Shown here in pieces: positions 263-62,144 of a stretch of 64,000 nt of DNA. The first letter of the stretch is position 1; each line of letters begins with the position of its first letter. The position numbers and the translations under genes were made by a program. Where the stretch lies: contig CADADB010000006.1 of the NCBI GenBank assembly GCA_902786595.1, positions 62,001-126,000 of the forward strand. Reading direction: 5' to 3'. Under the pieces are notes generated by a model. It was not told where the DNA came from, did not search any database, and saw only the letters and a list, made by a program, of their open reading frames with translations. The stretch comes from an uncultured Bacteroidota bacterium (GTDB lineage: Bacteria > Bacteroidota > Bacteroidia > Bacteroidales > WCHB1-69).

Positions 263-283
263 GGTTATTGGTTATAGGTTATT
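263..283. repeat. Heptad array, 3 units (GGTTATT/GGTTATA)
   Basis: Three contiguous 7-base units, GGTTATT, GGTTATA, GGTTATT, fill the gap between the 3' end of the outer-membrane protein gene and the start of the oxidoreductase gene. It belongs to the window-wide class of 7-base-period intergenic arrays. Confidence 0.7.
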
Positions 284-300
284 GAGTGGTGATATAATCG

Positions 301-852
301 TTAGAAACGGTAGCGGACACCGAGGGCGATGTTGAGCAGGTTGGAGGTGAAATCGCCTTGGCGTAGGCCGAAGACATTGATCATCGGGCGCCAGTCAAGA
401 CTGAGGTTCAATGGGATGTTAAAATCATATTCCAACCCGATCTGGGCACCGACAGGAAGTCCTAAACGTCTGAATTCCACAAGTTTACCATGTTTGTCAT
501 AATGTGGAAAATTAAAGAAATCACCATAACCCCAGCTCACGCCAGCGGCGGCACCGATATACCAGTATAAACCTGATTTGATGTTCATGACCCAGTCGTA
601 GGCGAGGATCAATTCGGCACGTCCATATTGGTAACGCTGAACAAGAGCATCGCCGTCCTCGTCGTACATGACACCTGTGGAGGTGATGAAGGGTGAAACT
701 CCGGCATCCACTTCCAGCATCCCGTTCGAAATGGCGTGTTGGTAGGAGACTTCAAAATTGTAGCCGATTCGGCCACCAATGGCCTTGGGCTGCGCCATCA
801 CTGCGCCAACCGTCAGGCAAATCATTACGATTAAGGTTAATAGTTTCTTCAT
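301..852 (-). CDS. Small outer-membrane beta-barrel-like protein
   Basis: A 183-residue protein with a clear signal peptide (MKKLLTLIVMICLTVGAVMAQ) followed by alternating polar/aromatic segments. It ends in GVRYRF; a terminal Phe is the classic last-strand signal of outer-membrane barrels recognised by BAM. The ATG at 850-852 is chosen because it begins the signal peptide; a TTG four codons upstream is open but would put NNT before it. It starts 8 bases after the tatD stop, so the two are probably one transcript. No family name can be given from sequence alone; an eight-stranded barrel of the porin/OmpW-like size class is the best guess. Confidence 0.7.
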   Translation of the reverse strand: MKKLLTLIVMICLTVGAVMAQPKAIGGRIGYNFEVSYQHAISNGMLEVDAGVSPFITSTGVMYDEDGDALVQRYQYGRAELILAYDWVMNIKSGLYWYIGAAAGVSWGYGDFFNFPHYDKHGKLVEFRRLGLPVGAQIGLEYDFNIPLNLSLDWRPMINVFGLRQGDFTSNLLNIALGVRYRF

Positions 853-860
853 TGTATTGT

Positions 861-1631
861 TCAATTAAAAAAAATTCGTTCGGCATTCTCCGTTGTCCGT
901 TCCATCACTTCTTTTACAGGAACTTCCATGATTTCGGCGATTTTTTGGGCGATGAGTGGAATGTAGCTGCTCTCGTTTGGCTTGCCCCGGTGTGGGGTAG
1001 GGGCGAGGTAGGGTGCGTCGGTTTCCAACACGATGTGTTCCAGTCCGATTTTCGGGATCAGCTCCTGCAATTTGCTGTTCTTGAAAGTCACAATGCCGCC
1101 GATACCGATGACAAAACCATGTTTCGCCGCCCAGTCCGCCTCCTGGATGCCACCCGAAAAACAGTGAAGGACACCGCGCAATGATCCTATCGGGTATTCG
1201 TTCAGAATCGGGATGGCCTCGCTGTAACCGTTGCGGATGTGCAGCGAAAGAGGCATCTTGCGGTCACGGGCCCAGTCTAATTGCTTTCGGAAGACAATCA
1301 ACTGTTCCTGCTCAAAGTCGCGGTCGTGGTAAAAATCCAGCCCGATTTCCCCGATGCCGACGATGTTGCGGTCGCCAATATGCGTTTCCAGCTCCGCCAG
1401 CTGTGCTTCGTAGTCCTCCTTCACATCGGAAGGATGCAGTCCGATGAGTCCGAAGATGTTCTCCGGAAACAGTTCCACCGCCTCAGCAATCATCGGGGGC
1501 GTGAGTGCATCCACGCAGGCAAGGAGCACCTTCTCCACATGCGCATCCACTGCGCGCTGAATCACCCCTTGAAGATCTTCAGGGTAATATTCTCGGTACA
1601 GGTGCGCATGGGTATCTATGTAATAATTCAT
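861..1631 (-). CDS. tatD: TatD family metal-dependent hydrolase (DNase)
   Basis: 256 residues, the normal TatD length. The metal site is complete: THAH near the N-terminus, GEIGLDFYH (Glu about residue 97), SLHIRN, LHCFSGG and ETDAPYLAP (Asp about 204). TatD proteins are cytosolic two-metal TIM-barrel 3'-5' deoxyribonucleases linked to DNA repair and quality control. The ATG at 1629-1631 is the last unit of a heptad repeat (ATGAATT on this strand) that also contains the stop codon of the upstream MATE gene, so the two genes are closely coupled. Confidence 0.93.
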   Translation of the reverse strand: MNYYIDTHAHLYREYYPEDLQGVIQRAVDAHVEKVLLACVDALTPPMIAEAVELFPENIFGLIGLHPSDVKEDYEAQLAELETHIGDRNIVGIGEIGLDFYHDRDFEQEQLIVFRKQLDWARDRKMPLSLHIRNGYSEAIPILNEYPIGSLRGVLHCFSGGIQEADWAAKHGFVIGIGGIVTFKNSKLQELIPKIGLEHIVLETDAPYLAPTPHRGKPNESSYIPLIAQKIAEIMEVPVKEVMERTTENAERIFFN

Positions 1632-1659
1632 AATTCACAATTCATAATTCATAATTCAT
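1625..1659. repeat. Heptad array, 5 units (AATTCAT), spanning a stop and a start codon
   Basis: Five contiguous 7-base units, four AATTCAT and one AATTCAC (ATGAATT/GTGAATT on the minus strand). The array contains the last codons and TGA stop of the MATE gene (1649-1651) and the ATG of tatD (1629-1631). Every unit but one supplies an ATG on the minus strand. Confidence 0.9.
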
Positions 1660-3025
1660 CGTTCTGAATTGAGAACACGTGGCGTTGCGTGAAGAGCAAG
1701 ATGGCCGCGAGGATGGCGCCGAGGATGTCGGAAATAGTCAGAGAAACCCAGACTCCGTTGAGACCGTTCCAACCCAAATTGGTGAAAACCATGGGAAGGA
1801 GGAGACTCATCGGGACGAGGAAGATGACTTGTCGTGACAAGCTGGTGGTGATGGCCACCCAGGGCTTGTCGATGGATTGGAAGAAGTTGGAGTTGACGAT
1901 GGTGAATCCGATGAACGGGAACATCACCATACTATACCGCAATGCTGTTTTGCCAAGTTCAATAAGGTGAGCGTCGCTGGTGAAAACGCGCATCAGCAAG
2001 CGCGGGAAGGAGCAGGAAATCACACTGCCGATCAAGCCGGCAATCACACAAATCCACATGGTCAGCGTATATACGTGCTTGAGACGGTGGCCATGACCTG
2101 CACCATAGTTGTATCCAGCAATCGGCTGCATACCTTGACAAACACCTATAATTATGAGTACCAGGAAATTACCGTATGTATTGCAGATACCGTAGGCGCC
2201 AACCGCGTAGTCACCGCCATAAAACAGCAGCTGGCGGTTCAGGATGGCGACCACACCGGCGGCGGCTAAGTTCATCAGGAACGGACTCATACCGATAAGT
2301 GTGATGTTCTTGAAAATATAGCCCCGCAACTTCCAGCCGTGGGATGTGAAACGGATGAACGAGCCGGGTTGCACAAAATGGAGGATCGACACTACAGTCA
2401 TGCAGAAAATGGAGATGGAGGATGCAATGGCCGCACCTTTGATGCCCATGCCAAGGGCAAAAATAAAAATAGGGTCGAGGATAATGTTGAAAATGGCACC
2501 TCCTGCCATAATTAACATTGCCTTGGTGGGATAGCCGGAAGCACGAATCAGACCCGTGAGGTTGAAGGTGATGGTGATCATGAACATCCCCGGAAGGATA
2601 TAGATCATATATTCGCGGGCGTAAGCCAATGTCTCAGCCGTCGCACCGAACATCATCAAAATCCGGTCTAAGAAGAAATAACAGAAAAGAACGACACATC
2701 CACTTAATATAAGCGTGAAAATCAAGCTGTTACCTAGAATATTCTCGGCCCATTCCTTGTCCTTTTTGCCGAGGACGATGGACATCCGCGAGGCGGACCC
2801 CACCCCGATCAGCGAACCGAACGCGTGAATGATGTTCATCAACGGGAAGGTGATGGCGAGTCCGGCAATGGCCAAAGGACCAACACCATGCCCGATGAAA
2901 ATTCTATCTACAATATTATAAATGGAGGCGATAATCTGGCTGATCACCGCCGGCAGGGCATAAATCCACAATAGCTGCCCGATAGGTCTCGTTTCAAGTT
3001 CTTTTGTTCTGTCTAGAGTTTCCAA
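1649..3025 (-). CDS. MATE family efflux transporter
   Basis: 458 residues, highly hydrophobic with about twelve membrane segments, the size and layout of MATE exporters. Typical features are the N-terminal LLWIYALPAVISQIIASIYN segment, NIVDRIFIGHGVGPLAIAG, and the repeat-half counterpart GVCQGMQPIAGYNYGAG near residue 290. Such proteins expel cationic drugs or metabolites in exchange for Na+ or H+; the closest well-known relatives are of the MepA/DinF type. No ATG is available at the N-terminus, so the start is taken as TTG at 3023-3025, 8 residues before the conserved RPIGQLLW segment. Its 3' end lies in a heptad array. Confidence 0.88.
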   Translation of the reverse strand: METLDRTKELETRPIGQLLWIYALPAVISQIIASIYNIVDRIFIGHGVGPLAIAGLAITFPLMNIIHAFGSLIGVGSASRMSIVLGKKDKEWAENILGNSLIFTLILSGCVVLFCYFFLDRILMMFGATAETLAYAREYMIYILPGMFMITITFNLTGLIRASGYPTKAMLIMAGGAIFNIILDPIFIFALGMGIKGAAIASSISIFCMTVVSILHFVQPGSFIRFTSHGWKLRGYIFKNITLIGMSPFLMNLAAAGVVAILNRQLLFYGGDYAVGAYGICNTYGNFLVLIIIGVCQGMQPIAGYNYGAGHGHRLKHVYTLTMWICVIAGLIGSVISCSFPRLLMRVFTSDAHLIELGKTALRYSMVMFPFIGFTIVNSNFFQSIDKPWVAITTSLSRQVIFLVPMSLLLPMVFTNLGWNGLNGVWVSLTISDILGAILAAILLFTQRHVFSIQNDEL

Positions 3026-6224: not shown

Positions 6225-6244
6225 CGTCTAAAAATTTTAAGCCG

Positions 6245-6252
6245 CAAAGATA
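6245..6252 (-). promoter_or_regulatory. Promoter -7 box of serS (TATCTTTG)
   Basis: Exact Bacteroidota consensus TAnnTTTG on the minus strand, followed by GCGGC, about 20 bases before the serS ATG. Confidence 0.8.
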
Positions 6253-6286
6253 CGATTTTTTTAGGGAATAGGCAATGGGGTATTAA

Positions 6287-6377
6287 GACTTAGGACTTAA
6301 GACTTAGGACTTAAGATTTAGGACTTAAGATTTAGGACTTAGGATTTAGGGTATAGGATTAATGACTTGAGACTAAA
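6287..6377. repeat. Heptad array, 13 units (GACTTAG/GACTTAA/GATTTAG)
   Basis: The longest array in the window: thirteen contiguous 7-base units without a frame break. The units are variants of GACTTAR that become more degenerate towards the right end. It lies between the serS promoter and the 3' end of the YD-repeat gene, and faces a second array of opposite sense across a GGAATATTCC palindrome at 6382-6391. Confidence 0.92.
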
Positions 6378-6393
6378 GATTGGAATATTCCCA

Positions 6394-6435
6394 AAGTCTT
6401 ACGTCTTACGTCTTACGTCTCACGTCTCACGTCTT
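6394..6435. repeat. Heptad array, 6 units (ACGTCTT/ACGTCTC), inverted relative to its neighbour
   Basis: Six units, AAGTCTT then ACGTCTT and ACGTCTC variants. Read on the minus strand they are AAGACGT/GAGACGT, the same sense as the downstream arrays of other genes. Together with 6287-6377 it can form a long imperfect hairpin. Confidence 0.88.
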
Positions 6436-6459
6436 TTTTCGTGTAAGCCATGGATTTTG

Positions 6460-11609: not shown

Positions 11610-14600
11610 ATGAGAAAAGTTTACAATTTCAAAAAGCTGACCGAAAAGGTCATGAACGTTGCCGTTCTCTTGCTTATGCTAGTGATGACGGCCGGTACTC
11701 TTTTCGCTGAAGAGGTGACGATTGTCTTCTCGGAGGCGGGATTGGTTAACACACAGGTGCTCCCTGACGGTGATATCAATGGGATCATCATGTACAGCGG
11801 CGACCAACAAGGTGCCGCCACTGACGGCCCGAAATATTATAGCTCGGGATCCGCCTTGCGTTTTTACAATGGTTCTGGCAACACTCTGGGCAATGCCTTG
11901 ATCCTCACCCCTGCTTTCGGATATCAGATTACGGGGCTTACCATTAATGGTGTTGCCAATTACACTCCTGTGGTAGGATATGTCGTGGATGGCGGGGAGA
12001 CCATGATGGTCAATGCCGATGATCAGGTTTACACCATCTCCGACATAGAGGCAACCACTAGTCTGAGATTCTACAATGCCGGCGACTTCCAGCTGCGCGT
12101 CTCTTCCATCACCATTTCTTATACGACTGCTGATGTTCCTGCCGTGGCTACTCCGACATTCAACCCGCAACCGGGTATTTGCACCCTCCCTACCAATGTT
12201 TCTCTTTCTTGTGCCACCCCAGGCGCCATCATTTATTACACCTTGAATGACGGCGAATACTATGCTTCTTATGAATCAGAGATAGCATTAGACACCACCA
12301 CTACCATCCATGCCTTTGCCGTTCTGGGCGAAGATACCAGTGACATAGTGAATGCCACGTACGTGTTCCCGCAAAATGTGAATCTGAATGGCTTCAAAAA
12401 TGGAGTTCCTGGTGGGTTATATATGATCCAAAACGCTAATGAGAAGTTGGATTTTGTTTTCCGGGATGGCCGGAATATCTACTTCATGTCTGAACAGCTG
12501 GGCTCTTCAAGAGGTTTGTTGGTATATGACAACAGTAATCCAGTGGTCACCACTTCATTTGAAGAGGGTGAATCTGTCGACATGCTGATGGGAACATTGG
12601 CTTTTTATAATGGCATTCCGGAGATGATTCCGGTTGCAAATCCAGGACTCGCAGCGGGTTCGGCACCTCATACGGTGGCTCCTGTGCAAGTGACTGTCGC
12701 GGAACTGCTGGCTAACCCTGAAATGTACATTTCCTCATTGGTTATCATCAAAGACGGCCAATTCCAAGCCGGTGCCTTCAACACTAGCACCAAAACCGGA
12801 GTGCAATTCACTCAAGGCACCGACGCCATAGTGGTTTACAACAACTTCAAAACGGTGTCTGCCACCTTTGAAGGAGGCGAAAAAGCTTCTGTGGTGGGAC
12901 TTGTGGGCATGTATAACGGTGTGCCTCAGATTTATCCTCGCGGCAATAGTGACATTATCCGTGTCGCTCTCCCCTATGTTTGCGACTTTGAGGGAGGCGC
13001 AGCGCTGGAATGGAACTTTAAGAACGCCACTAAGAACAAATGGTTTATCCATAACGCCCAGGGCTTTGACAACAAGAAAATGTTTGTCTCTTCCACAACT
13101 GGCTTCACGAATATGTATGACCCGACGATTTCTGCCGTCAGCCATGCCTACCTCAATGTCACGTTGCCCGAATCTGACATGTTGTTGAATTTCGATTGCA
13201 GAGTCGTGGGTAACGGGAATGACTTCCTGCAGGTATCCGTGCTTGATGAAGCTCCTGCAGACATGGTGCTCCCCGAAACCTACCTGGCACGCTATCATGG
13301 CATCAACGAGTTCACCAACCAGACTGTGCTGATTCCTTCGTCTTATGCCGGGGAGAAGGTCATTGTCTTTACCTGGATCAACGACAACAGCGTTGGAAAC
13401 CAAACGCCTGCCGCCATTGATAATATCACGTTGCGTACCACTTGTACGATGGTCTCCAATGTGACTGCCACGGTGGATAACCGTACAGCAGTCGTCACTT
13501 GGGTAGCTCCTGAAGGACAGGAGGCATGGACGCTGCAATACAAAGCGGTGGACGCTGACGCTTGGCAGAGCGTGAACACCACGTCAACCAGCGTTACGCT
13601 GAACAACCTTGCTACGGAGACCTCATACGATTTGCGAGTCAGAGCCAACTGTGAGGCAGAGGCCAGCGCATGGAACACCGTCCAGTTTACGGTTCCTTGT
13701 ATCGACCTGACGTCAGAAGAGATGGAAGTGTCCATCGGAACGGGCACATCCAGCTCTTACAACGCCCCGATGAATGCCTATTATGGAAATTCTTGGACGC
13801 AGATGATTTATCCCGCCTCCAATTTCTCCACGCCCGGCTTCATCAATTCGTTGTCTTGGCAGACCGCCAACGCCACTTCCCACGCTTATACTTCTTTGAA
13901 GATATATCTCGGCACGACCACCATGTCAGGGCACAGTTCTTCATCCGACTGGTTGTCCATGGACGATCTGACCCTCGTGTATGAGAACAATAACGGCACT
14001 ATTGGTGGTGCTACTGGTTGGGAAACTTATACATTGAATAATCCTTATTATTATAATGCAGAAGATAATCTGGTGGTGGTGGTTTCCCGTGCCGCTCCCA
14101 GTTGGGCAACGGTCAACTACTATTACACTTCAACTCCGAGTGCTGTTCTCTACAGACGTGCTGATGGCAATTCCTCTTATGCAGAACATCCCGGTTCCGC
14201 AACAGGTTCCCAGCTTAATCAACTTCCGAACATGAGAGTTGACTACTTGGGTTATGTGTGTGGTGATGACCATTGCGCTGCCCCTGAAGAGGTGCTCGTG
14301 AACAATATTACGACAAACAGTGCGGCTCTTCTTTGGGAACCCGGTGAAGCATCCAGCTGGAGAGTGAGTTACAAGGGCGAAAATGAGGAAGACTGGACCA
14401 GTTTCAGCGTTGGCACCAATTTCTGCCAGCTGTCCAATCTGGCACAGAATACCCATTACGAGGTGCGCGTGATGGCGGATTGCGGCAATATCGGAAGAAG
14501 CGCTGAGGCGTCAGTCGCGTTCACCACTGTTGCCGATTGTCCCGCCCCGACAAACCTTACGGTCACCCATAATCTGAACAATACGATTGTTTCTTGGACT

Positions 14601-17600
14601 CCTGTCGCAGGTGTGAATTCCTACGTGTTGCAATATTCTCATGTGAATTCCGGTATGTGGCAGAATGTCAACGTGAACTACGCCTCCACGTTTGTGCTGG
14701 GCGGTTTGACCGAAGGCGAAAGTTACATTGTGCGCGTGAAATCCGTTTGCGATGCTGAAACCGAGCTGGAGAGCAGCTGGGCTACCTGTACTTTCGTAAG
14801 ACCGGTTTACTGTGATGTTCCCACCCAATTCACCGTGTCGGAAATTACAAGCACTTCTGCAAAGATTGCTTGGGACACCCTTTCTGCCAATTCTTGGACA
14901 GTTCAATATGGTGAAGCCGGATTCGAGTTGGGACATGGTACTGTCTTGACGGTGAGTGCTCCTGTGGCCACGATTTCGGGCTTGACCCCGCAGACCACCT
15001 ACGACGTGTATGTGAGACCTAACTGTGCTGGTTTCTGGGGTGCGTGGTCATCTGTTTACTCCTTCACAACCGCTTGCGGTGGTATTACCATTACGGAAGC
15101 CAATCCTTGGTTTGAAGATTTCGAGGGTTACCACGGTAGCGGCGCCATCGGCGTTGGAGATTGCTGGAGCGCTCCTGTGACCGCAAATGCCAGCAATGGT
15201 GTCTTCCCGTCTGTATATGTCGGTTATTCCGGTTCAACCTATTCCGGCGCCAACTCCATGGAGTTCAAGGGTGCCAGCAACTTGTTGGTGCTGCCTCTCT
15301 TCACGAATGCCATGAACACGTTGCAGTTCACCTTCTGGGCGAACACCACCGCCTATAGCGATTACTCAGCAGGTACTATGGAAGTGGGTATTATCACGGA
15401 TATCACGGATCCCACTACATTCACGGTGGTGGAGAACATTCCTCCGACGGCATTCAACCGCGTTGGTCAGGATGCTCCTCATGCGAACTTTGTTGGACCC
15501 GTCTCCTTTGCTAATGTTACTCCCGCACCTGGACAGAGAATCGCCATGCGCTATTCGAACCCCAGTTATACCACGCAATCATGGAATTTGGATGACTTTA
15601 CCGTTTCCATCGTTCAAGATTGTCCTGTTCCCGGCAATGTTGCCGCTTCCGAAATTACCGACAGCACAGCCAAGATCACATGGACTCCCAATGGCGAAGA
15701 GACCCAATGGCAACTCCAATATGGTGTTGAGGGATTCATTCTCGGCTTAGGCAATACTGTCAATGTCACTACGAATCAATATGTTTTGACCAATCTCAGC
15801 GAAGGAACTTCATACGATGTTTACGTGAAGGCCGTTTGTGACGAGAACACTTCCAGTGTCTGGTTCGGACCTTACACCTTCGAGACTACCACGACCGCTA
15901 TTGAACCTCAACCGCTTTGCGAAGACGGTTGTCAATACACTTTTGTGCTCACTGATACCTATGGTTCAGGTTGGACGGATATCAATTACGCCACGGGCGA
16001 GACTGTGGTGGGTTCTCTGGTTATCAAACAGAACGATATCGTTGTCTCTTCTTTGACCATGACGGAAGAAGATGGCGAAACGGTCACCTATCAAGTGCCG
16101 TTGTGTGACTCTATGCCGACCACTTTCATTCTCACGCCGAGTTACTGGGGTGATGAAATGGGTGTTGCAGTGTATGACCCTAATGGTGAGTTGGTATGGT
16201 TGTTTGAAGAGAACACATTTGAAGGATTCGGCGATGACGATCCTGTTGAGTTCAATTTCACCGCTGTGTGTCCTGAAATCATCAACTGTGTGAATCCTGA
16301 AAATCTGGTGTTGACAGCATTGACCGACTCCACCGCCACTTTGGCTTGGACAGGCGATCCCACGGTCACGTATGTGGTTTATTATGGTCCTGCTGGTCAG
16401 GTAGTTCAATACACGGACACTGTGACGGCCACGGAGATCACGCTTACGGGTCTTACGTCTGGAGTCACCTATATGGCTTGTGTGCGCGCCCTTTGCAACA
16501 ATACGGATGTTATTTCCAATGTGGTGGTCTTCTATCCGACGCAATTCACCACGAAAGACATAGCTTTGTCGGAAATCAAACCGATTTCAAATGCTTGCGA
16601 TTTGACGAATATCCCGGTTACCATTACCGTCCAAAACGCTGGTGAAGGCGAGTTCAATATTTTCGAAGCTTACTATATGGTGAATAGCGGTAACGTTGTT
16701 CACGAGACGATTACGCTCATTGCCCCGTTGGCAGCGAATGAAACTATGACGTACACCTTCGTTACCAAAGCAAACCTGACGGAGTCCTCCAACGTGGTCA
16801 CCGCATGGGTTGAACTTCCTGGCGACGGCAATTCGATGAACAACATGTTGATTACCAATCCTGTCATCATCCTTGATCCTGCTTCCGTTCCTTTTGTGGA
16901 GACCTTTGAAGCAGAGGAAATTCATGACGGCTGGGTGAATGTTGACAACCAATTTATCATTACCGGTGGCAAGCTCGTGGCTTTGCCGAAAGCTGAGTTT
17001 GATGCCCAGAGCCGCTTGATTTCTCCGTGCATGTATATTCCTGCCGGCCATTATGATGTTTCTTACTCCTATAACGCGGTTGATCCGATGTTCACGGAGA
17101 AAATGGATGTCTATTTCGGCACGAAGGAGAATGGCGAATATGATATGACATTGCTGGCTTCTGAGGAATTTTCCAATCAAAATGTGATTACCGCCCACTA
17201 TACATTAGAGGTTGCGGAGAGCGGTATTTACTACTTCCAGATTAACTCCAGCAGTATTTATGGTACAGCCGGTTTCGTTGTTGATAATTTTGCTGTGAAG
17301 AATATGATTAATTTCACGGTGTATGCTGGCGAAAACGGTACTGTGATTCCTGAAGGCGCTGTGGAGTATGTTGCTGGTGAGCCCTACACCTTCGCCATCA
17401 TTCCGGATCCTGGTTATCATGTGATGGGTATTTACAGAAATATGCAATTAGTGAGTGGTGAGAATGCAAATAATGCAGGTGTTCAATACTTCACCTTCAC
17501 TCCTCAAAACAATGACAATATCTATGTGACGTTCACTTCCAGCCACTTTGAGGTGAATGCTACGGTGGATAACCTCCATTACACCGATTTCAATGAAAAC

Positions 17601-20000
17601 GCCATTGGAGCGGTCTATACTCCGAATCATGCAACGGTTAACTACGGCGCATCCCATAGCGGTCTCATTACGCTGGCAGCACACTATCATGTCTATTCTG
17701 TCACTGTTAATGGTTTGGATGTCACGGAAAGTCTGGTTCCTGTCAATGAACATCAATATATGTTGACTATTGACAATATTGTGGAAGACAAGAATATCCA
17801 TGTGGTGGCTGGTCTTGACAGCACGACTATCGTTTACACGGTTCTGGCAGGTCAGGGCACAATCAACAACGACATCGTGGTGGATGCCACAACAGAGCTT
17901 CCTGCCGTTTATACCGTCACGTTGCCTGGATATTCCGACCTGTTGAGTACGATTACCCCTGCTCCTGGTTACCATGTGTCCAGCATTATTGTGGACGGTG
18001 TGGAACACAATATCATTGACATGTATTCTTTCGAGCATCTTTTCGGTTATCATACAGTTACCGTGGTCTTCTCCAAGAACCACTATACTATTACCACTGT
18101 CGCTTACGGCAATGGTACAGTGTCGGAGGGTGCTGAATTCGAGTATGATCCCAACTATGTGTATGATTTCATCGCCACTCCTGCAGAAGGATACCGTATT
18201 GCCAGCATCTTGCGCAACAATGTGGAGATTCCTGTCGCCAATCCGGCGGTCACTTATACGGAGTCTCTGACAAACATCACCACCGATTATGTTTATGAGG
18301 TGCATTTTGCCCAGAACACGTTTACCATTACGGCTGCTTCTGGCGCCCACGGCACGGTTTCACCGGTGGGAGTTACCTATTATCTCTATCATCAGGATGC
18401 TGTGTATGAGATCAATGCCGAACAAGGATATTACATCGCTTCTGTGACCATCGATGGAGAGACCTCCAACTTCACGCAGGCAGATGCATTGACCAGTTAT
18501 ACGACCACGTTCTCTCAGATCAGCGAAGACCACACCATCAGCGCGACATTCGCCCAGATGATCTTCACTGTGACGGCGAATCCTGTCACGAATGGCAATA
18601 TCACCATTCCTGGTAACGGCACCTATCCTTACGGAGCCACTCCGACATGCGTCATCACTCCTAACGAAGGTTACCTTATCAGCGATGTGACCGTTGACGG
18701 CGAGTCTGTGGGTGCAGTTAGCTCCTACACCTTCACTCCTCTGGCATCGAATCACACTATCGGCGCCACCTTCAGCGCGGCGTTGTTCACCATCACGGCC
18801 ACTGCCGGTAATGGTGGTAACATCACTCCTGCCGGAGTTACGAATATGGCCTACAACGGCAGCCAGGCCTACACGATTTCAGCCAACGCCGGTTATCATA
18901 TCAGCGATGTGTATGTGGACGGCGTTTCCGTTGGCGCTGTGGCTTCCTACACCTTCAACAATGTCACTGCCAACCACTCCATCTATGCCGCATTCGAGGC
19001 AAATGAATACACCATTACGGTGAACCAGCCCGCTAATGGTGTCATCACGCCTGGTACCACCACCGTCGTGAGCGGTGCCACCCCGACCTTTGTGTTCACT
19101 CCCGCTCTTGGATACGCCGTTACTGCAATTACGGTGAACGGCACAAATGTCATTGCCAATGCCACTAACTTGAATGACATCTACACCTATGTGTTCCCCG
19201 CCGTTAACGCTAACCAAACCCTTACGGCTACCATGACGGCCAAGTCCTTCACTATCAATGCTACGGCAGGTGCTAACGGCTCCATCACGCCGAGCGGCAG
19301 CACAACCGTCTATTATGGTAACACGCAGTCTTACAATATTACTCCTGCAAATGGATATGTTGTGGATAATGTGGTTGTGGATGGTATGAGTGTGGGTGCG
19401 CTCACCAGCTATATTTTCACGAACGTGGTGGCTAACCACACCATCAGCGTGACGTTCAAGCTGGCTGACTGCGACATCCCCACCTTCTTATATACCAGCC
19501 ATATTGACAGTACTTCCGCTGAGCTGCACTGGTCTCACCCGACAGCTACTTCCTTCGATATTCAGTACAAGACGCCCACCGGCACCATGACTGCGGTTTC
19601 TGCAATTGCCGGTACCAGCTACCTCTTGACTGACCTGACACCGAATACGACCTACCTGTGGCAAGTGCGCGCAAACTGCTCGTCAACTAATCACAGTGAA
19701 TGGTCCAACATGGTCTCCTTCACCACTGAAAGCACCACGATTGATGAAACAGGTATCGAGGATCTCGTGAAGAGCAGCATCAAAGTCTATGCGGAACATC
19801 AAAATGTCCATATCCTCAACAACGAGGGTCTGAACATTGACAATGTGCGTATCTTTGACGCTTACGGCAAACTGATTTACAACGGTACGGTGAACACCAC
19901 GCACGAGGTCATCGGCCTTACCGTGGCTGCCGGCACGTACATCGTGAATGTAACCACCGACAAGGGTGTTGCTAACTACAAGGTTGTGATTATGAAGTAA
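11610..20000 (+). CDS. Giant T9SS-exported adhesin-like protein (FN3, choice-of-anchor J-like, InlB-type repeats, type A sorting domain)
   Basis: 2796 residues, the largest gene here. Order seen: signal segment (residues 1-34); a beta domain; a chitobiase C-terminal-like domain (about 175-250, PGAIIYYTLNDG); three DFEG/FEDF/ETFE jelly-roll modules of the cleaved-adhesin or choice-of-anchor J kind (about 455-610, 1165-1330, 1760-1898); and six fibronectin type III-like modules between them (SYDLRVRANC, TYDVYVRPNC). Nine tandem InlB/Listeria-Bacteroides-type repeats follow at about 1900-2620 (GYHISDVYVDGVSVGAVASY and variants), then a seventh FN3. The C-terminal ~75 residues (VRIFDAYGKLIYNG ... 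AAGTYIVNVTT) match the type A sorting signal. No catalytic domain is evident, so an adhesive or cell-surface binding role is inferred. It has its own promoter and terminator. Confidence 0.88.
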   Translation: MRKVYNFKKLTEKVMNVAVLLLMLVMTAGTLFAEEVTIVFSEAGLVNTQVLPDGDINGIIMYSGDQQGAATDGPKYYSSGSALRFYNGSGNTLGNALILTPAFGYQITGLTINGVANYTPVVGYVVDGGETMMVNADDQVYTISDIEATTSLRFYNAGDFQLRVSSITISYTTADVPAVATPTFNPQPGICTLPTNVSLSCATPGAIIYYTLNDGEYYASYESEIALDTTTTIHAFAVLGEDTSDIVNATYVFPQNVNLNGFKNGVPGGLYMIQNANEKLDFVFRDGRNIYFMSEQLGSSRGLLVYDNSNPVVTTSFEEGESVDMLMGTLAFYNGIPEMIPVANPGLAAGSAPHTVAPVQVTVAELLANPEMYISSLVIIKDGQFQAGAFNTSTKTGVQFTQGTDAIVVYNNFKTVSATFEGGEKASVVGLVGMYNGVPQIYPRGNSDIIRVALPYVCDFEGGAALEWNFKNATKNKWFIHNAQGFDNKKMFVSSTTGFTNMYDPTISAVSHAYLNVTLPESDMLLNFDCRVVGNGNDFLQVSVLDEAPADMVLPETYLARYHGINEFTNQTVLIPSSYAGEKVIVFTWINDNSVGNQTPAAIDNITLRTTCTMVSNVTATVDNRTAVVTWVAPEGQEAWTLQYKAVDADAWQSVNTTSTSVTLNNLATETSYDLRVRANCEAEASAWNTVQFTVPCIDLTSEEMEVSIGTGTSSSYNAPMNAYYGNSWTQMIYPASNFSTPGFINSLSWQTANATSHAYTSLKIYLGTTTMSGHSSSSDWLSMDDLTLVYENNNGTIGGATGWETYTLNNPYYYNAEDNLVVVVSRAAPSWATVNYYYTSTPSAVLYRRADGNSSYAEHPGSATGSQLNQLPNMRVDYLGYVCGDDHCAAPEEVLVNNITTNSAALLWEPGEASSWRVSYKGENEEDWTSFSVGTNFCQLSNLAQNTHYEVRVMADCGNIGRSAEASVAFTTVADCPAPTNLTVTHNLNNTIVSWTPVAGVNSYVLQYSHVNSGMWQNVNVNYASTFVLGGLTEGESYIVRVKSVCDAETELESSWATCTFVRPVYCDVPTQFTVSEITSTSAKIAWDTLSANSWTVQYGEAGFELGHGTVLTVSAPVATISGLTPQTTYDVYVRPNCAGFWGAWSSVYSFTTACGGITITEANPWFEDFEGYHGSGAIGVGDCWSAPVTANASNGVFPSVYVGYSGSTYSGANSMEFKGASNLLVLPLFTNAMNTLQFTFWANTTAYSDYSAGTMEVGIITDITDPTTFTVVENIPPTAFNRVGQDAPHANFVGPVSFANVTPAPGQRIAMRYSNPSYTTQSWNLDDFTVSIVQDCPVPGNVAASEITDSTAKITWTPNGEETQWQLQYGVEGFILGLGNTVNVTTNQYVLTNLSEGTSYDVYVKAVCDENTSSVWFGPYTFETTTTAIEPQPLCEDGCQYTFVLTDTYGSGWTDINYATGETVVGSLVIKQNDIVVSSLTMTEEDGETVTYQVPLCDSMPTTFILTPSYWGDEMGVAVYDPNGELVWLFEENTFEGFGDDDPVEFNFTAVCPEIINCVNPENLVLTALTDSTATLAWTGDPTVTYVVYYGPAGQVVQYTDTVTATEITLTGLTSGVTYMACVRALCNNTDVISNVVVFYPTQFTTKDIALSEIKPISNACDLTNIPVTITVQNAGEGEFNIFEAYYMVNSGNVVHETITLIAPLAANETMTYTFVTKANLTESSNVVTAWVELPGDGNSMNNMLITNPVIILDPASVPFVETFEAEEIHDGWVNVDNQFIITGGKLVALPKAEFDAQSRLISPCMYIPAGHYDVSYSYNAVDPMFTEKMDVYFGTKENGEYDMTLLASEEFSNQNVITAHYTLEVAESGIYYFQINSSSIYGTAGFVVDNFAVKNMINFTVYAGENGTVIPEGAVEYVAGEPYTFAIIPDPGYHVMGIYRNMQLVSGENANNAGVQYFTFTPQNNDNIYVTFTSSHFEVNATVDNLHYTDFNENAIGAVYTPNHATVNYGASHSGLITLAAHYHVYSVTVNGLDVTESLVPVNEHQYMLTIDNIVEDKNIHVVAGLDSTTIVYTVLAGQGTINNDIVVDATTELPAVYTVTLPGYSDLLSTITPAPGYHVSSIIVDGVEHNIIDMYSFEHLFGYHTVTVVFSKNHYTITTVAYGNGTVSEGAEFEYDPNYVYDFIATPAEGYRIASILRNNVEIPVANPAVTYTESLTNITTDYVYEVHFAQNTFTITAASGAHGTVSPVGVTYYLYHQDAVYEINAEQGYYIASVTIDGETSNFTQADALTSYTTTFSQISEDHTISATFAQMIFTVTANPVTNGNITIPGNGTYPYGATPTCVITPNEGYLISDVTVDGESVGAVSSYTFTPLASNHTIGATFSAALFTITATAGNGGNITPAGVTNMAYNGSQAYTISANAGYHISDVYVDGVSVGAVASYTFNNVTANHSIYAAFEANEYTITVNQPANGVITPGTTTVVSGATPTFVFTPALGYAVTAITVNGTNVIANATNLNDIYTYVFPAVNANQTLTATMTAKSFTINATAGANGSITPSGSTTVYYGNTQSYNITPANGYVVDNVVVDGMSVGALTSYIFTNVVANHTISVTFKLADCDIPTFLYTSHIDSTSAELHWSHPTATSFDIQYKTPTGTMTAVSAIAGTSYLLTDLTPNTTYLWQVRANCSSTNHSEWSNMVSFTTESTTIDETGIEDLVKSSIKVYAEHQNVHILNNEGLNIDNVRIFDAYGKLIYNGTVNTTHEVIGLTVAAGTYIVNVTTDKGVANYKVVIMK

Positions 20001-20053: not shown

Positions 20054-20074
20054 TTAAGGGTTAAGGGTTAAGGG
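20054..20074. repeat. Heptad array, 3 units (TTAAGGG)
   Basis: Three perfect TTAAGGG units directly behind the terminator and before the radA promoter. Confidence 0.85.
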
Positions 20075-20119
20075 ATAAATCAAAAATTGATTCAGGATAT
20101 TCGGGTTCATAGAATTGTG

Positions 20120-22555: not shown

Positions 22556-22562
22556 GAGATAA

Positions 22563-22618
22563 GGCAATAGGCAATAGGCAATAGGCAACAGGCAATAGGC
22601 AACAGGCAACAGGCAATA
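22563..22618. repeat. Heptad array, 8 units (GGCAATA/GGCAACA)
   Basis: Eight contiguous units, five GGCAATA and three GGCAACA, starting 7 bases after the stop of PepSY-like gene 1. Confidence 0.93.
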
Positions 22619-25012: not shown

Positions 25013-25879
25013 ATGAGAATTATTGATGGAAAAATATGTGCACAGCAGGTGAAGAATCAGATTGCCAAGGAGGTGGCGGAAATCAAAGCCAAGGGACAAC
25101 GCCCTCCGAGATTGGACATTTTTCTTGTCGGCGACCGTCCTGACAGTCTTTCCTATGTACATACCAAAGACAAGACCTGCAGGGCGTTAGGAATGGATAG
25201 CCAGTTGCATCTCCTGCCCGACACCACGACCGAGAGCGAGCTGATGGTCATGATCGATGAATGTAACCGCAACGATGATGTCGATGCCATTCTCATCCAG
25301 CTGCCCCTGCCCGACCACTACAATTCCGCTCGGGTGCTGGACTTTATCGACTATCGCAAGGATGCCGATGGACTACACCTGATGAATGTCGGGTTGCTGC
25401 ATTTGGGTGAACCCTACGTGATGCCTTGCACGCCGAAAGGGATACTCTCTTTGTTGGAAACCAACGGGATAGAGGTGTCTGGCGAGCATGTGGTAATGAT
25501 TGGGCGCAGTCAACTGGTAGGCGAGCCCACCGCGCAACTGCTGATACACAAGAACGCCACGGTCACGCTATGTCACTCCCGTACGAAAAATCTGTCGGAA
25601 ATCGCGCATCTCGGCGACATAGTCATAACCGCTGTTGGATGTCCGAATCTGCTCCAACCCTACGATTTCAAGCAAGGTGCAGTGCTCATCGATGTGGCCA
25701 TGAACCGCGTGAATGGCAAATTGCAGGGAGATGTCTATAGCGAAGAAACCCGTCCGGAACTGGAGAAACGGCTCCGTGCCTGCACACCTGTTCCTGGCGG
25801 TGTCGGTCCCATGACCATCGCCATGCTTATGCAGAACGTCCTGGACATTTACAAATTAAGAATGCAGAATCCTTCTTAA
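25013..25879 (+). CDS. folD: Bifunctional methylenetetrahydrofolate dehydrogenase / methenyltetrahydrofolate cyclohydrolase
   Basis: 288 residues, standard FolD length. Motifs: SYVHTKDKTCRALGM (contains the catalytic Lys of the family), ILIQLPLPDH, PCTPKGILSLLE, VVMIGRSQLVGEPTAQLL (NADP binding), CHSRTKNLSE, and PVPGGVGPMTIAMLMQN at the end. It interconverts C1-tetrahydrofolate forms in the cytosol. Its stop codon touches a heptad array that is the only sequence separating it from the convergent SPOR gene. Confidence 0.97.
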   Translation: MRIIDGKICAQQVKNQIAKEVAEIKAKGQRPPRLDIFLVGDRPDSLSYVHTKDKTCRALGMDSQLHLLPDTTTESELMVMIDECNRNDDVDAILIQLPLPDHYNSARVLDFIDYRKDADGLHLMNVGLLHLGEPYVMPCTPKGILSLLETNGIEVSGEHVVMIGRSQLVGEPTAQLLIHKNATVTLCHSRTKNLSEIAHLGDIVITAVGCPNLLQPYDFKQGAVLIDVAMNRVNGKLQGDVYSEETRPELEKRLRACTPVPGGVGPMTIAMLMQNVLDIYKLRMQNPS

Positions 25880-25913
25880 GTCCAAAGTCCTCAGTCCTCA
25901 GTCCTCAGTCTTA
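25879..25913. repeat. Heptad array, 5 units (AGTCCTC)
   Basis: Units AGTCCAA, three AGTCCTC and AGTCTTA. It starts at the last base of the folD stop codon and ends 2 bases before the stop codon of the convergent SPOR gene, so the array is the whole intergenic region. Confidence 0.92.
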
Positions 25914-27032: not shown

Positions 27033-27067
27033 TTGGACTTTGAACCTTGAACCTTGAACTTTGAACT
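27033..27067. repeat. Heptad array, 5 units (TTGAACC/TTGAACT)
   Basis: TTGGACT, two TTGAACC and two TTGAACT units in the divergent region between mntP and the Gfo/Idh/MocA gene, ending 8 bases before the latter's -7 box. Confidence 0.9.
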
Positions 27068-29668: not shown

Positions 29669-29703
29669 GACGTATGACTTGAGAAGTGTGACTTTGGACT
29701 TTT
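29669..29703. repeat. Heptad array, 5 units (GACTTGA/GACTTTG family)
   Basis: GACGTAT, GACTTGA, GAAGTGT, GACTTTG, GACTTTT; a degenerate member of the GACTT family between xylA and xylE. Confidence 0.7.
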
Positions 29704-29762: not shown

Positions 29763-29797
29763 TCTCAAATCACACGTCACACATCACACATCACAAA
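29763..29797. repeat. Heptad array, 5 units (TCACACA)
   Basis: TCTCAAA, TCACACG, two TCACACA and TCACAAA. The last unit contains the TGA stop codon of xylA. Confidence 0.85.
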
Positions 29798-47961: not shown

Positions 47962-47996
47962 CAACAGTTAACAGCCAACAGCTAACAGCCAATAGC
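47962..47996. repeat. Heptad array, 5 units (TAACAGC/CAACAGC)
   Basis: CAACAGT, TAACAGC, CAACAGC, TAACAGC, CAATAGC, directly abutting the ddpX stop codon. On the minus strand it reads GCTATTG/GCTGTTA, the same family and sense as the array behind sprA. Confidence 0.92.
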
Positions 47997-48812
47997 TTAC
48001 CTCAGCTCCTTCACTGGAAACTCAAAGTACGTCTCCGGATACGGTTCGTCCTTTAACGTGAAGTGCCACCATTCGCTGTCGAGGGGTTTGAAACCGTGGC
48101 GGAGCATCGCGGCCCGCAAAATCATGCGGTTTCGGAACTGCTCTTCGGTGATGGTACGGCCTGCGGGAGAGGGTTTTCCGTTGAACTCGCCCGTCTCGGG
48201 GTTGCCGCCGAAATCAGGGTGGCTCTCCTCGCCGAACCAGTCGAAGGTGCCGCCCATGTCAACCTCCTTCTCGGTGGTCATGTCGAAGAGGGTGAGATCG
48301 ACGGTGGAGCCGCGGGTGTGGCCGCTTTTCGCCGCGATGTAGTCCAGTTCGAACAACCGACTCTTATCGACCTCGGGGTAGAAATAGCGCCGCATCATCG
48401 TGTCGGGGATGTTGGCGGCCCAGCGCACGAAATGATCGACGGCCATCTGCGGACGGTAGGCGTCGTAGATTTTCAGCCGGTAGCCCATGCGCATCACGTC
48501 GTCGCTGACGGCCTTGAGACTGTCGGCGGCGCGTCTGGTCATCAGGGCGGTGGGCTGCAGGTAACCATCAATGCGCTGTCCCACAAAGTTGTAGGTGCTG
48601 AAATAGCGGATTTCCAAAATCGCGTCCGGCACCACGTCGGTGATGTTCACGAACTGGCTGGCGTCCTGCTCGGGCTTCACGGTTGTGCTGGAAGCGGCGG
48701 AGGTGCAGGGTGCAAACCCGGCCACGACGACATGCCCGTTTTGGGCGGTGGCCGTCAAGGTGAAACACAACGCGACGGTACATATAAACAGAGTTTTGAG
48801 GTCTCTTTTCAT
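47997..48812 (-). CDS. ddpX: D-Ala-D-Ala dipeptidase (VanX/DdpX family)
   Basis: 271 residues with a signal peptide (CTVALCFTLTATAQ). The zinc-site motifs of the M15D family are complete: SGHTRGSTVDLTL (His, Asp), a DSEWWHF motif (Glu, His), and YDAYRPQMAVDHF upstream (Arg of the active site). These enzymes cut D-Ala-D-Ala or related cell-wall dipeptides. No vanH or vanA homologue is nearby, so a recycling role is more likely than vancomycin resistance. The promoter box is TACTTTTG at 48833-48840. Confidence 0.93.
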   Translation of the reverse strand: MKRDLKTLFICTVALCFTLTATAQNGHVVVAGFAPCTSAASSTTVKPEQDASQFVNITDVVPDAILEIRYFSTYNFVGQRIDGYLQPTALMTRRAADSLKAVSDDVMRMGYRLKIYDAYRPQMAVDHFVRWAANIPDTMMRRYFYPEVDKSRLFELDYIAAKSGHTRGSTVDLTLFDMTTEKEVDMGGTFDWFGEESHPDFGGNPETGEFNGKPSPAGRTITEEQFRNRMILRAAMLRHGFKPLDSEWWHFTLKDEPYPETYFEFPVKELR

Positions 48813-54466: not shown

Positions 54467-54468
54467 TT

Positions 54469-55071: not shown

Positions 55072-55104
55072 GCCAAAAGCTAATAGCTAATAGCCAAAAG
55101 CCAT
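55070..55104. repeat. Heptad array, 5 units (TAGCTAA/AAGCTAA)
   Basis: AGGCCAA, AAGCTAA, TAGCTAA, TAGCCAA, AAGCCAT. It overlaps the stop codon of the sigma-partner gene. Reverse-complemented it reads TTGGCTA/TTAGCTA, the GGCTATT family again. Confidence 0.85.
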
Positions 55105-55177: not shown

Positions 55178-55675
55178 ATGGATCTAAACAGTATCATTTC
55201 CTCGCTCACGGGCAACAACCTCATCGGAGAAATTGCCAAAAAGTTCAACATTGACCCTAACAAAATCATTGAAGTTATCAAGGCCGCTATCCCTAAATTC
55301 CTCGGTTCCATGCATCAAAACGCATCAACAGCGGCGGGAGCTGCAGCGTTAACCCAAGCCCTTGGCAACCACGCTGGTCAGGGATTTGGAATCAACCTTG
55401 AAGATGGACAGAAGATTCTCTCCAAGATTTTCGGTGGCAATCTGGGTTCCGTGATTTCCTCTTTGGGCAAGCAAACGAGCACCCCTAACGATCAGGTTAA
55501 CAACATTTTGGCTTCCATTGCCCCGAACCTCCTTTCCGTTTTGGGCAAAGGTGCTGGCACGGGCAACATCGGCAACATCCTCGGTGGACTGTTGGGCGGT
55601 AGCGCCAGCGCGAATTCCGGTTCCAGCGCAGGCAAAGTCCTCGGCGGCCTACTGGGAAAGATTTTCAAGAAGTAA
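55178..55675 (+). CDS. DUF937 family protein
   Basis: 165 residues, no signal peptide. N-terminal helical domain (MDLNSIISSLTGNNLIGEIA, IIEVIKAAIPKFLGSM), then a Gly/Ser/Leu-rich C-terminal half with GNIGNILGGLLGGSASANSG and a basic end GLLGKIFKK, characteristic of DUF937/YidB-like proteins. It is predicted to be cytosolic; function is unknown. Its stop codon is followed at once by a heptad array and then a bidirectional terminator and palindrome. Confidence 0.85.
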   Translation: MDLNSIISSLTGNNLIGEIAKKFNIDPNKIIEVIKAAIPKFLGSMHQNASTAAGAAALTQALGNHAGQGFGINLEDGQKILSKIFGGNLGSVISSLGKQTSTPNDQVNNILASIAPNLLSVLGKGAGTGNIGNILGGLLGGSASANSGSSAGKVLGGLLGKIFKK

Positions 55676-55717
55676 GACTTGAGACTTAAGACTTAGGACT
55701 TAGGACTTAAGACTTTT
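55676..55717. repeat. Heptad array, 6 units (GACTTAG/GACTTAA)
   Basis: Six contiguous units beginning at the base after the DUF937 stop codon: GACTTGA, GACTTAA, two GACTTAG, GACTTAA, GACTTTT. The same unit family as the 13-unit array before serS. Confidence 0.93.
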
Positions 55718-55777: not shown

Positions 55778-55808
55778 TGTAGAGACGTTTCATGAAACGT
55801 CTCTACAA
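55777..55808. repeat. Perfect 32-base palindrome, copy 1 of 3
   Basis: Arms TTGTAGAGACGTTTCA and its exact complement meet without a spacer. The right arm supplies the last codon and the TAG stop of galM on the minus strand. Related copies are at 61419-61446 and 62063-62092. Confidence 0.95.
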
Positions 55809-61418: not shown

Positions 61419-61446
61419 GTAGAGACGTTTCATGAAACGTCTCTAC
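61419..61446. repeat. Perfect 28-base palindrome, copy 2 of 3
   Basis: Same core as copy 1 (GTAGAGACG arms, TTTCATGAAA centre), between GH97 and rfbC on the minus strand, 16 bases beyond the rfbC stop. Confidence 0.95.
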
Positions 61447-61462: not shown

Positions 61463-62011
61463 TTAGTATTCAAACGGCGACACAAACGTGGCAAACGCCT
61501 CGCCGTGCATGTCCTTTTCAGAAGTGATGGGGTTCTCAATTTGCCAATCGATGTTCAAATCCTTGTCATTGAACATGATACACCCCTCGGAGGCCTTGTT
61601 GTAGAAATTCGAGCATTTGTAGGCGAAAACGGTGTTATCCTCCAAGGCGGCGAAACCGTGTGCAAAGCCGGCAGGGATGTAGAACTGACGGAAATTATCG
61701 GCGGTAAGCAACGTGGAAACGTACTGTCCGTATGTCGGACTGCCTTTGCGGATATCTACGGCGAAATCTCTTACCGAACCGCGCAGCACCCGCACGATTT
61801 TGGCCTGCGCGTAAGGCGGCTTCTGAAAATGCAACCCGCGCACCACACCCTTCTGCGAACACGACTGGTTGTCTTGCACGAAATCGTCTGTGATTCCTAA
61901 CTCCTTGTAGCGTTGCTCGTTATAACTCTCGAAAAAATACCCGCGGTCATCCTTGAAAACCGTCGGCTCAATGATTAACAATCCTTCAATTTGTGTTTTT
62001 ATTATTTCCAT
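61463..62011 (-). CDS. rfbC: dTDP-4-dehydrorhamnose 3,5-epimerase
   Basis: 182 residues, the RmlC/RfbC length. Cupin motifs: FKDDRGYFFESYNEQRY, DNQSCSQKGVVRGLHFQKPP (catalytic His), RVLRGSVRDFAVDIRKGSPT and IPAGFAHGFAALEDNTVFAY. It epimerises the 4-keto sugar in dTDP-L-rhamnose synthesis for surface polysaccharide. rfbA, rfbB and rfbD are not in the window, so this is a solitary copy here. It is flanked by palindromes on both sides and by a heptad array at its 5' end. Confidence 0.96.
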   Translation of the reverse strand: MEIIKTQIEGLLIIEPTVFKDDRGYFFESYNEQRYKELGITDDFVQDNQSCSQKGVVRGLHFQKPPYAQAKIVRVLRGSVRDFAVDIRKGSPTYGQYVSTLLTADNFRQFYIPAGFAHGFAALEDNTVFAYKCSNFYNKASEGCIMFNDKDLNIDWQIENPITSEKDMHGEAFATFVSPFEY

Positions 62012-62017
62012 TATTCT

Positions 62018-62045
62018 AGTGAATAGTGATCAGTGATTAGTGAAC
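62018..62045. repeat. Heptad array, 4 units (AGTGAAT/AGTGATC/AGTGATT/AGTGAAC)
   Basis: Four contiguous units just upstream of the rfbC start codon, with a looser fifth (TATGATA) at 62046-62052. Confidence 0.85.
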
Positions 62046-62062
62046 TATGATAGGTGGATGTC

Positions 62063-62092
62063 TGTAGAGACGCTATGCATAGCGTCTCTACA
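62063..62092. repeat. Perfect 30-base palindrome, copy 3 of 3
   Basis: TGTAGAGACG arms as in the other copies, but the centre is CTATGCATAG instead of TTTCATGAAA. The change is compensated on both sides, so the palindrome is kept. It lies between two arrays in the rfbC/CLC gap. Confidence 0.95.
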
Positions 62093-62102
62093 CCTATCCA
62101 AT

Positions 62103-62144
62103 TTTCATCATTCATCATTTTTCATTCTACATTGTACATTGAAT
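62103..62144. repeat. Degenerate heptad array, 6 units (TTTCATC/ATTCATC/ATTGTAC)
   Basis: Six 7-base units starting mostly with ATT, of decreasing similarity, ending at the stop codon of the CLC gene. Confidence 0.6.

What the first reader, a model, noticed from the sequence alone, without database searches (positions are those of the whole stretch)
263..62144. At least seventeen intergenic arrays of degenerate repeats, all with a strict 7-base period but many different unit sequences
Seen directly: arrays at 263, 1625, 6287, 6394, 20054, 22563, 25879, 27033, 29669, 29763, 44186, 45929, 47962, 55070, 55676, 62018 and 62103. The units differ in sequence (GACTTAG, GGCAATA, TTGAACC, AGTCCTC, TCACACA, GGCTGTT, AATTCAT, TTAAGGG and others), but the period is always 7. 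Eight arrays have exactly five units and four have six. Nearly all lie between genes, and most abut a stop or start codon. Simple slippage would not explain one period shared by unrelated units. Heptanucleotide STRR repeats of heterocystous cyanobacteria are the nearest known parallel I can name. The inference is a common mechanism that makes or spreads 7-base arrays at gene ends in this lineage.
Basis: partly seen in the sequence, partly recalled or inferred. Interest (0 to 1): 0.78.

Follow-up and report, generated by a model that had tools for sequence, protein, structure and literature searches.

The report
Gene-edge heptamer repeats with fixed polarity
A gut-type bacterium and its close relatives carry many short seven-letter DNA repeats placed right at gene edges, mostly facing the same way, and their wording differs between sister species; this widens a known but unexplained kind of bacterial repeat.

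Summary
The window has 13 period-7 arrays (score at least 12) against 0.0 in simulations, and at most one at any other base period. In 464 kb of the same genome 98 of 121 arrays have period 7, 14 or 21. Details need correcting. Units are not unrelated: word families recur across the genome (138 identical pairs against about 12 by chance). Unit number varies. Period is not strict: 6-mers and 8-mers occur, and sister species G004 uses mostly 8-mers. Arrays hug gene edges (46 of 83 within 10 nt of a stop codon or overlapping it). The G-rich strand reads away from the nearest gene edge, stop or start, in 77 of 94. One family, four GGTTATD units with a fixed left end, has 92 matches in this genome and 6 to 101 in 17 of 40 genus genomes, none in 19. 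Sister species often hold another word, or none, in the same gap. Polarity, four-unit preference and convergent pairs were already reported for GGGNATC repeats in Xanthomonas and Nostoc (PMC4692102). New here: many words per genome, weaker polarity of words without GG, fast word replacement. Mechanism unproven.

The parts
263..284 (+). worn 3-unit copy of the GGTTATD element (strand = G-rich strand, here and below)
1623..1659 (-). ATAATTC array spanning the junction of two genes; predicted stop (1649-1651) of one and start (1629-1631) of the other lie inside it
6283..6357 (+). GAC-family array (TTAAGAC/TTAGGAC) on the serS side of the gap; convergent partner of the next array
6396..6434 (-). 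GAC-family array (GTCTTAC on +), facing 6283
20054..20078 (+). TTAAGGG array after a hairpin-and-T-run sequence (by eye); G006 has a TTTGCGG inverted pair here
22562..22616 (+). AGGCAAY array, about 8 units; G006 has a longer one, G020 an ATAGTY 6-mer array, G013 a GTAGAGACG palindrome
25878..25910 (-). AGTCCTC (GAC family) filling a convergent gap; G006 and G020 have no such array
27033..27067 (-). TTGAACY array just upstream of a promoter-like box (by eye); same word in G020 and G006; G and C nearly balanced
29669..29702 (+). weak GAC-like stretch (below threshold), facing 29770
   Evidence: read by eye in the output; below threshold
29770..29795 (-). TCACACR array overlapping a predicted stop codon
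44187..44229 (+). RGCTDTT-family array after a stop codon
45929..45964 (+). weak RGCTDTT-like stretch (period 14 in TRF)
47962..47997 (-). RGCTDTT family (AACAGCC on +)
55072..55103 (-). RGCTDTT family (AGCTAAT/AGCCAAA on +); exception to the polarity rule
55673..55715 (+). GAC-family array starting at a stop codon
62017..62043 (+). TAGTGAW array, left arm of a gap with a REP-like palindrome in the middle
62104..62141 (-). TTCATCA / CATTGTA array, right arm of the same gap

Best explanation
These are dispersed short tandem-repeat elements anchored at the edges of functional DNA. Each lineage has its own set of degenerate words, mostly heptamers, also 6-, 8- and 9-mers. Shown: the same words recur at many gene edges; the G-rich strand mostly reads away from the edge; one family has a fixed left end; contents of the same gap differ between sister species. 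Inferred: new arrays are written by copying an existing array into a gap next to a gene edge, growing 5' to 3' on the G-rich strand into the gap, after which slippage changes unit number and point mutations spread among units. The edge placement then needs little more than selection: stop codons, start codons and promoters cannot be overwritten, so arrays fill the dispensable DNA between them. The enzyme that does the copying is unknown.
For: Shared vocabulary: 117 arrays, 138 identical word pairs against 7-17 in 20 letter-shuffled sets. GGTTATD element: 92 matches at up to 2 mismatches (a few overlap one another), 68 with none; reversed-pattern control 0 and 1. In 30 distinct copies positions -3 and -2 are AA in all 30, and -1 is T in 29. 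Of 40 genus genomes (own included, up to 1 mismatch) 17 have 6 to 101 matches, 4 have one, 19 none; reversed controls 0 to 7, i.e. a lineage-specific dispersal. Of 101 copies with both flanks in 102 named stretches and 2 viral-collection contigs (115 found, 0 inside predicted genes), the AAT end is within 15 nt of a gene edge in 72 and the other end in 11; dropping one identical local sequence, 72 and 10 of 100; orthologues remain in that set. Polarity 77 of 94 in the own genome. Adjacent arrays in one gap: 17 convergent, 8 direct, 0 divergent, 2 unsigned (threshold 9). Turnover own against G020: of 27 gaps with an array in at least one, 9 share a word, 6 hold different words, 12 have it in one only (a few 'different' are one family with another consensus). 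G006 has a CAGTTAG array with filler where own and G020 have no gap (gap 296). Identical D-position triplets in GGTTATD copies exceed independence, 564 against 434 +/- 21 (species and orthologues are pooled, so descent may contribute).
Against: The direct test of copying for the GAC family failed: among 21 arrays only 1 pair shares 21 bases or more, against 2.2 after shuffling units, so these arrays are not recent multi-unit copies of each other. The supposed GAC tail GACTTTGGGGNATTCC is hardly more common than its reversed control (12 against 9). Arrays more than 15 nt from a stop edge do not follow the polarity (6 away, 9 toward). No insertion with a clean empty site and target duplication was found. 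No reverse transcriptase or Ku tracks the arrays, and only 1 of 15 RAYT-like loci has a heptamer array within 600 nt.
Confidence: 0.4

Rival explanations
1. Selected regulatory or structural elements: G-rich repeats fold into G-quadruplexes (or the C-rich strand into i-motifs) or bind a protein, and act on transcripts at gene edges, as discussed for GGGNATC repeats.
For: GGTTATD has four GG tracts with 5-nt loops, and the variable position is almost never C on the G strand (2 of 477); core positions are nearly invariant (68 of 92 perfect); polarity is strongest for words with GG (50:7 and 50:6 within 15 nt) and weaker without (41:19) (species pooled, orthologues not independent); four-unit preference and polarity in Xanthomonas and Nostoc (PMC4692102).
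Against: Many families have no GG tract (TAATTGA units, RTGAATT, many GAC units) yet lean the same way. The same gap often holds different words or none in sister species, so no word-specific function is conserved at those sites. A two-tier quadruplex with 5-nt loops is recalled as weak. The Xanthomonas authors could not identify a regulatory role (PMC4692102 discussion).
Confidence: 0.25
2. Polymerase slippage alone: period 7 reflects the DNA segment held by the polymerase, a hypothesis quoted in PMC4692102; arrays arise independently from local seeds.
For: Unit number differs between species in the same gap (gaps 190, 250, 298); in stop-edge arrays 28% of triplets in phase with the gene's stop codon are again stops, against 4-13% in other phases, as if the stop was part of the seed.
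Against: Does not explain shared words at unrelated loci, the fixed left end, polarity, or why a sister species uses 8-mers.
Confidence: 0.15
3. Transcription insulators: RNA entering a gene from outside reads the C-rich, G-poor strand and could load Rho, so arrays would stop unwanted transcripts entering genes; word identity would not matter.
For: The polarity is symmetric about stops and starts, and by eye about promoter boxes; composition of the strand leading away from the edge is C 0.106, G 0.263 in arrays within 15 nt, against 0.177/0.192 (stop) and 0.171/0.184 (start) in array-free gaps; word replacement would be tolerated.
Against: Arrays directly before start codons would hit the gene's own transcript; arrays are short; no transcript data here.
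Confidence: 0.12
4. Hairpin or terminator elements: paired arms form stems.
For: Some gaps with arrays fold very strongly (z down to -12 at C1:178805); convergent gaps with one array call have mean z -5.93 (n=9) against -4.05 without (n=10), two-array tandem gaps -2.36 (n=12); the window pair at 6225-6459 has z -2.4.
Against: Single-array tandem gaps are no more structured than array-free ones (mean z -1.60, n=30, against -1.69, n=88; gaps of 90-350 nt, doublet-block shuffles); terminator-like hairpins sit beside some arrays (by eye).
Confidence: 0.08

Closest known systems
GGGNATC / GGGGA(C/T)T heptamer repeats of Xanthomonas and Nostoc (Rehm et al. 2015, PMC4692102; abstract, passages, sections 10, 14 and 16 read)
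   Same: Period 7 with variable positions, intergenic, preference for four units, located just after stops on the sense strand or just before starts on the antisense strand, convergent pairs, under-represented between divergent genes.
   Different: There one G-tract word type per lineage was studied, 83% kept in the same gene context between two species. Here many words in one genome (17 clusters of at least three arrays in five pooled species), many without G tracts, 6- and 8-mers too, and only 9 of 27 gaps share a word between own and G020.
TAACTGA repeats of Beggiatoaceae, Cyanobacteria and five Bacteroidetes (MacGregor 2015, PMC4679880; abstract and passages read)
   Same: Heptamers near gene edges; Bacteroidetes members with mixed heptamer arrays; gaps differing between relatives.
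   Different: One word; in the main genome mostly before start codons. TAACTGA is not among the array words found in 464 kb here.
Heptamer excess in prokaryotes found by SPADE (PMC6344855; passages and section 14 read)
   Different: A survey; no polarity, words or turnover in what I read.
STRR repeats of heterocystous cyanobacteria (recalled; only listings seen)
   Same: Degenerate intergenic heptamers.
   Different: Words differ as far as recalled; not compared here.
REP / RAYT elements (recalled as a class)
   Same: Dispersed intergenic repeats in the same genomes and gaps.
   Different: REP-like hairpins flank several Y1_Tnp genes here; a heptamer array lies within 600 nt of 1 of 15.

Membership tests
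G-tract heptamer repeats (GGGNATC type) | tandem period of 7 with variable positions, mostly intergenic | tested here: met
   98 of 121 arrays period 7/14/21, 3 of 98 in genes, column make-up
G-tract heptamer repeats (GGGNATC type) | G-rich strand close to the 5' neighbouring ORF edge, stop or start | tested here: met
   77 of 94; 72 of 101 for GGTTATD in named loci; most sister species, but not G014, G022, G017 with few arrays
G-tract heptamer repeats (GGGNATC type) | preference for four units | tested here: inconclusive
   GGTTATD copies carry four units, but the search pattern asked for four; other families vary
G-tract heptamer repeats (GGGNATC type) | runs of three or more G in each unit, forming G-quadruplexes | tested here: not met
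   of the families only some TTAAGGG/GGGTTTA and GGTTATG units give GGG; most have GG or none; folding in vitro not testable here
G-tract heptamer repeats (GGGNATC type) | conserved in the same gene context between related species | tested here: not met
   own/G020 share a word in 9 of 27 gaps; the species distances are not matched to the Xanthomonas pair
TAACTGA repeats | unit TAACTGA | tested here: not met
   not among 56 canonical words of 117 arrays in 464 kb
STRR | the cyanobacterial STRR words | not tested
   words only recalled; plasmid look-ups failed
REP/RAYT | element flanks a Y1_Tnp gene | tested here: not met
   15 Y1_Tnp loci from 8 genomes: heptamer arrays within 600 nt in 1 (G012 C2), a weak 6-mer in 1 more
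telomerase-like or retron-type synthesis | reverse transcriptase present in array-rich genomes | tested here: not met
   RVT_1 not found in G020 (99% complete) and G013 (97%), which have 96 and 78 GGTTATD matches; families outside PF00078 not searched

The most novel reading that the evidence does not exclude
A general process, shared by unrelated bacteria (Xanthomonas, Nostoc, these Bacteroidales) and indifferent to the word and to the exact period, writes tandem arrays outward from the edges of functional DNA with the G-rich strand growing away from the edge, as if 3' ends were extended from the edge into the gap; G-quadruplex words would be only one outcome.
Probability: 0.2. Interest if true: 0.82.

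Novelty: new variant of a known kind. Interest (0 to 1): 0.52.

Why it matters
The excess of heptamers between bacterial genes has been noted without explanation (PMC6344855). This genus gives many words, more than one dominant period, and sister species whose gaps have swapped content, so slippage, quadruplex function and copying make different, testable predictions. Polarity that extends, more weakly, to words without G tracts argues that quadruplex formation is not the whole story.

Tried and rejected
Excess of transitions inside arrays (my impression, hinting at G-U wobble): ti/tv is 1.59 inside arrays against 2.27 between species, so rejected. Stop codons in all frames as the purpose: arrays in tandem gaps have stops in all three sense frames in 39 of 67, antisense 30 of 67, about 22 of 67 after permuting columns; partly explained by the gene's own stop being in register, not pursued. 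Hairpin as general explanation: not supported for single arrays. Recent multi-unit copying of GAC arrays: not supported. Conserved GAC tail: not supported. Reverse transcriptase, Ku, RAYT as the maker: no association seen. Overlap of stop and start (ATGA) amplified by tandem duplication: fits 1623 and the CGATGA 8-mers at C1:18730 but not GGTTATD; kept as a local origin for some arrays. A paper on Borg repeats (PMC9879509) was seen in a listing only. No paper describing this phenomenon in rumen Bacteroidales appeared among the rows listed by searches (20 of 871; 20 of 201); the library lacks most subscription journals. Rows dropped: arrays with equal G and C, arrays inside genes, arrays at stretch ends and gaps over the lengths set in each script were left out of polarity and turnover counts; the G004 set held 5 kb twice, so one of its 25 arrays is doubled, and this carries into. 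The stop-edge profile used arrays chosen to begin -3 to +7 nt from the stop (34), so its sharp start is partly by choice.
Full report
OBSERVATION. A scan of the 64-kb window for runs where each base equals the base p positions on gave 13 period-7 arrays at score 12 or more, 0.0 in ten Markov simulations, and at most one for any other base period; the hits at 14, 21 and 28 are multiples of 7. TRF agrees. The window is G000:C6:62001-126000 of a 2.84-Mb, 40-contig genome. In 464 kb of it (C1:1-200000, C2:1-200000 and the window) 98 of 121 non-overlapping arrays have period 7, 14 or 21. With my own gene predictions, 67 of the 98 lie in tandem gaps, 16 in convergent, 12 in divergent gaps and 3 in genes; gap space is 41.2, 7.9 and 14.7 kb, so divergent gaps are poorest. 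Of 83 with a stop edge 46 are within 10 nt of it or overlap it. In 34 arrays chosen to begin -3 to +7 nt from a stop, periodicity is 0.62-0.85 just after the stop, about 0.5 in the stop codon and 0.12-0.44 in the nine bases before it.

WORDS. The units are not unrelated. Of 117 arrays, 138 pairs share the same canonical consensus against 7-17 in 20 letter-shuffled sets. Greedy grouping of 208 arrays from own, G020, G006, G012 and G013 gives 17 clusters of at least three arrays, with fixed and variable columns, e.g. TAATKGA (other columns 97-100%), TTTRCGR, RGCTDTT, AGGCAAY, GACKTDR (the largest cluster mixes GGTTATD with GGCTATT). G-C and A-C differences between units one period apart are rare on the G-rich strand (4 and 7 of 288).

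THE GGTTATD ELEMENT. One family stands out: 92 matches of GGTTATNGGTTATNGGTTATNGGTTATTGA (up to 2 mismatches, a few overlapping), 68 perfect, reversed control 0 and 1. In 30 distinct copies the left end is AA at -3/-2 in all 30 and T at -1 in 29; the right side loses agreement after GAAGCT. The variable position is T 207, G 161, A 107, C 2 in the pooled copies. Of 40 genus genomes, own included, 17 have 6 to 101 matches, 4 have a single one (in G014 the reversed control gave 3) and 19 none. Of 115 copies in those stretches and two viral-collection contigs none is inside a predicted gene; of 101 with both flanks the AAT end lies within 15 nt of a gene edge in 72 (41 start, 31 stop), the other end in 11. 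Several of the rest abut promoter-like boxes or T runs, by eye.

POLARITY. In the own genome the G-rich strand reads away from the nearest gene edge in 77 of 94 arrays; within 15 nt, 42 to 3 at stops and 15 to 2 at starts; beyond 15 nt, 14 to 3 at starts but 6 to 9 at stops. Array-free gaps show no such skew (0.016). Sister species repeat it in the main, though start edges within 15 nt are mixed in G020 (5:4) and G006 (3:3) and far stop edges lean the other way (1:6, 1:2). G004, which lacks GGTTATD and has mostly 8-mers (GATGAAGR), gives 22 to 3 (one array counted twice); G014, G022 and G017 have few arrays and no trend: 1:3, 2:3 and 3:3. By word type, own and eight relatives pooled, within 15 nt: GG in most units 50:7, some GG 50:6, no GG 41:19; beyond 15 nt 19:5, 26:20 and 22:13. 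So polarity is strongest with GG but not confined to it. Adjacent arrays in a gap are 17 convergent, 8 direct, 0 divergent, 2 unsigned.

TURNOVER. Of 332 own gaps 96 had an orthologue in the fetched relatives. Own against G020: 9 gaps share a word, 6 hold different words, 12 have an array in one only, 58 neither; own against G006: 9, 5, 8 and 46. Where both flanks are at least 92% identical (own against G020 or G006, 25 comparisons): 1 shared, 3 different, 5 in one only, 16 neither. In gap 197 (C2:82975) flanks are 98-99% identical to G020 yet own has GAC arms and G020 has GGTTATD plus GTTTAGTG. Unit numbers also differ.

MECHANISM. Dispersal of GGTTATD within part of the genus is well supported; how it happens is not. 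I favour copying of arrays into gaps at gene edges with later slippage (0.4). The direct test on the GAC family was negative, so for that family the copying must be old or the explanation is wrong. Selection on structure or binding remains possible, most of all for GGTTATD, where four GG tracts and the missing C suit a quadruplex. RT, Ku and RAYT genes do not track the arrays.

KNOWN WORK. PMC4692102 reports for GGGNATC in Xanthomonas and Nostoc the same placement rule, four-unit preference and convergent pairs (abstract, passages and sections 10, 14, 16 read); PMC6344855 states the heptamer excess and the lack of a clue (passages and section 14); PMC4679880 describes TAACTGA repeats including some Bacteroidetes (abstract and passages). 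The present case is therefore a new variant of a known kind: many words per genome, words without G tracts, a second period, and fast replacement between sister species.

Noticed in passing
window 55779-55806, 61419-61446, 62064-62091: Three copies of a GTAGAGACG...CGTCTCTAC palindrome (6 half-sites, 0.21 expected), a REP-like dispersed element; one sits between the arrays at 62017 and 62104.
   Followed up: partly
L310, L317, L324 (own C1, G006 C17, G042): Y1_Tnp (RAYT-like) genes flanked by several copies of the CTACCGAGCT-TTGCCCC / GGGGC-AAAGCTCGGTAG hairpin; L312 and L322 by CCCCACACTGCG-type hairpins. These look like RAYT/REP pairs in this genus.
   Followed up: partly
L274:4977-5009 and L275:5739-5771: Two contigs of the viral collection carry a perfect GGTTATD element filling the gap between two predicted genes; phage origin of the contigs was not checked.
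   Followed up: no
L117:9489-9555 and 16052-16118 (G008:C13): A congener has period-9 arrays ACCCCNNNN, another lineage-specific period.
   Followed up: no
C1:18730 (gap 8), L031: A CGATGA 8-mer array runs from the stop codon of one gene to the start codon of the next, as if an ATGA overlap had been tandemly amplified.
   Followed up: no
L321:2070-2254 (G012 C2): Long AACCGTT-type heptamer arrays about 285 and 426 nt from a Y1_Tnp match, the only such case in 15 loci.
   Followed up: no
window 11610-20000 and 36879-44183: Two giant ORFs (2796 and 2434 aa); the first ends in a T9SS sorting domain, the second was not searched.
   Followed up: partly
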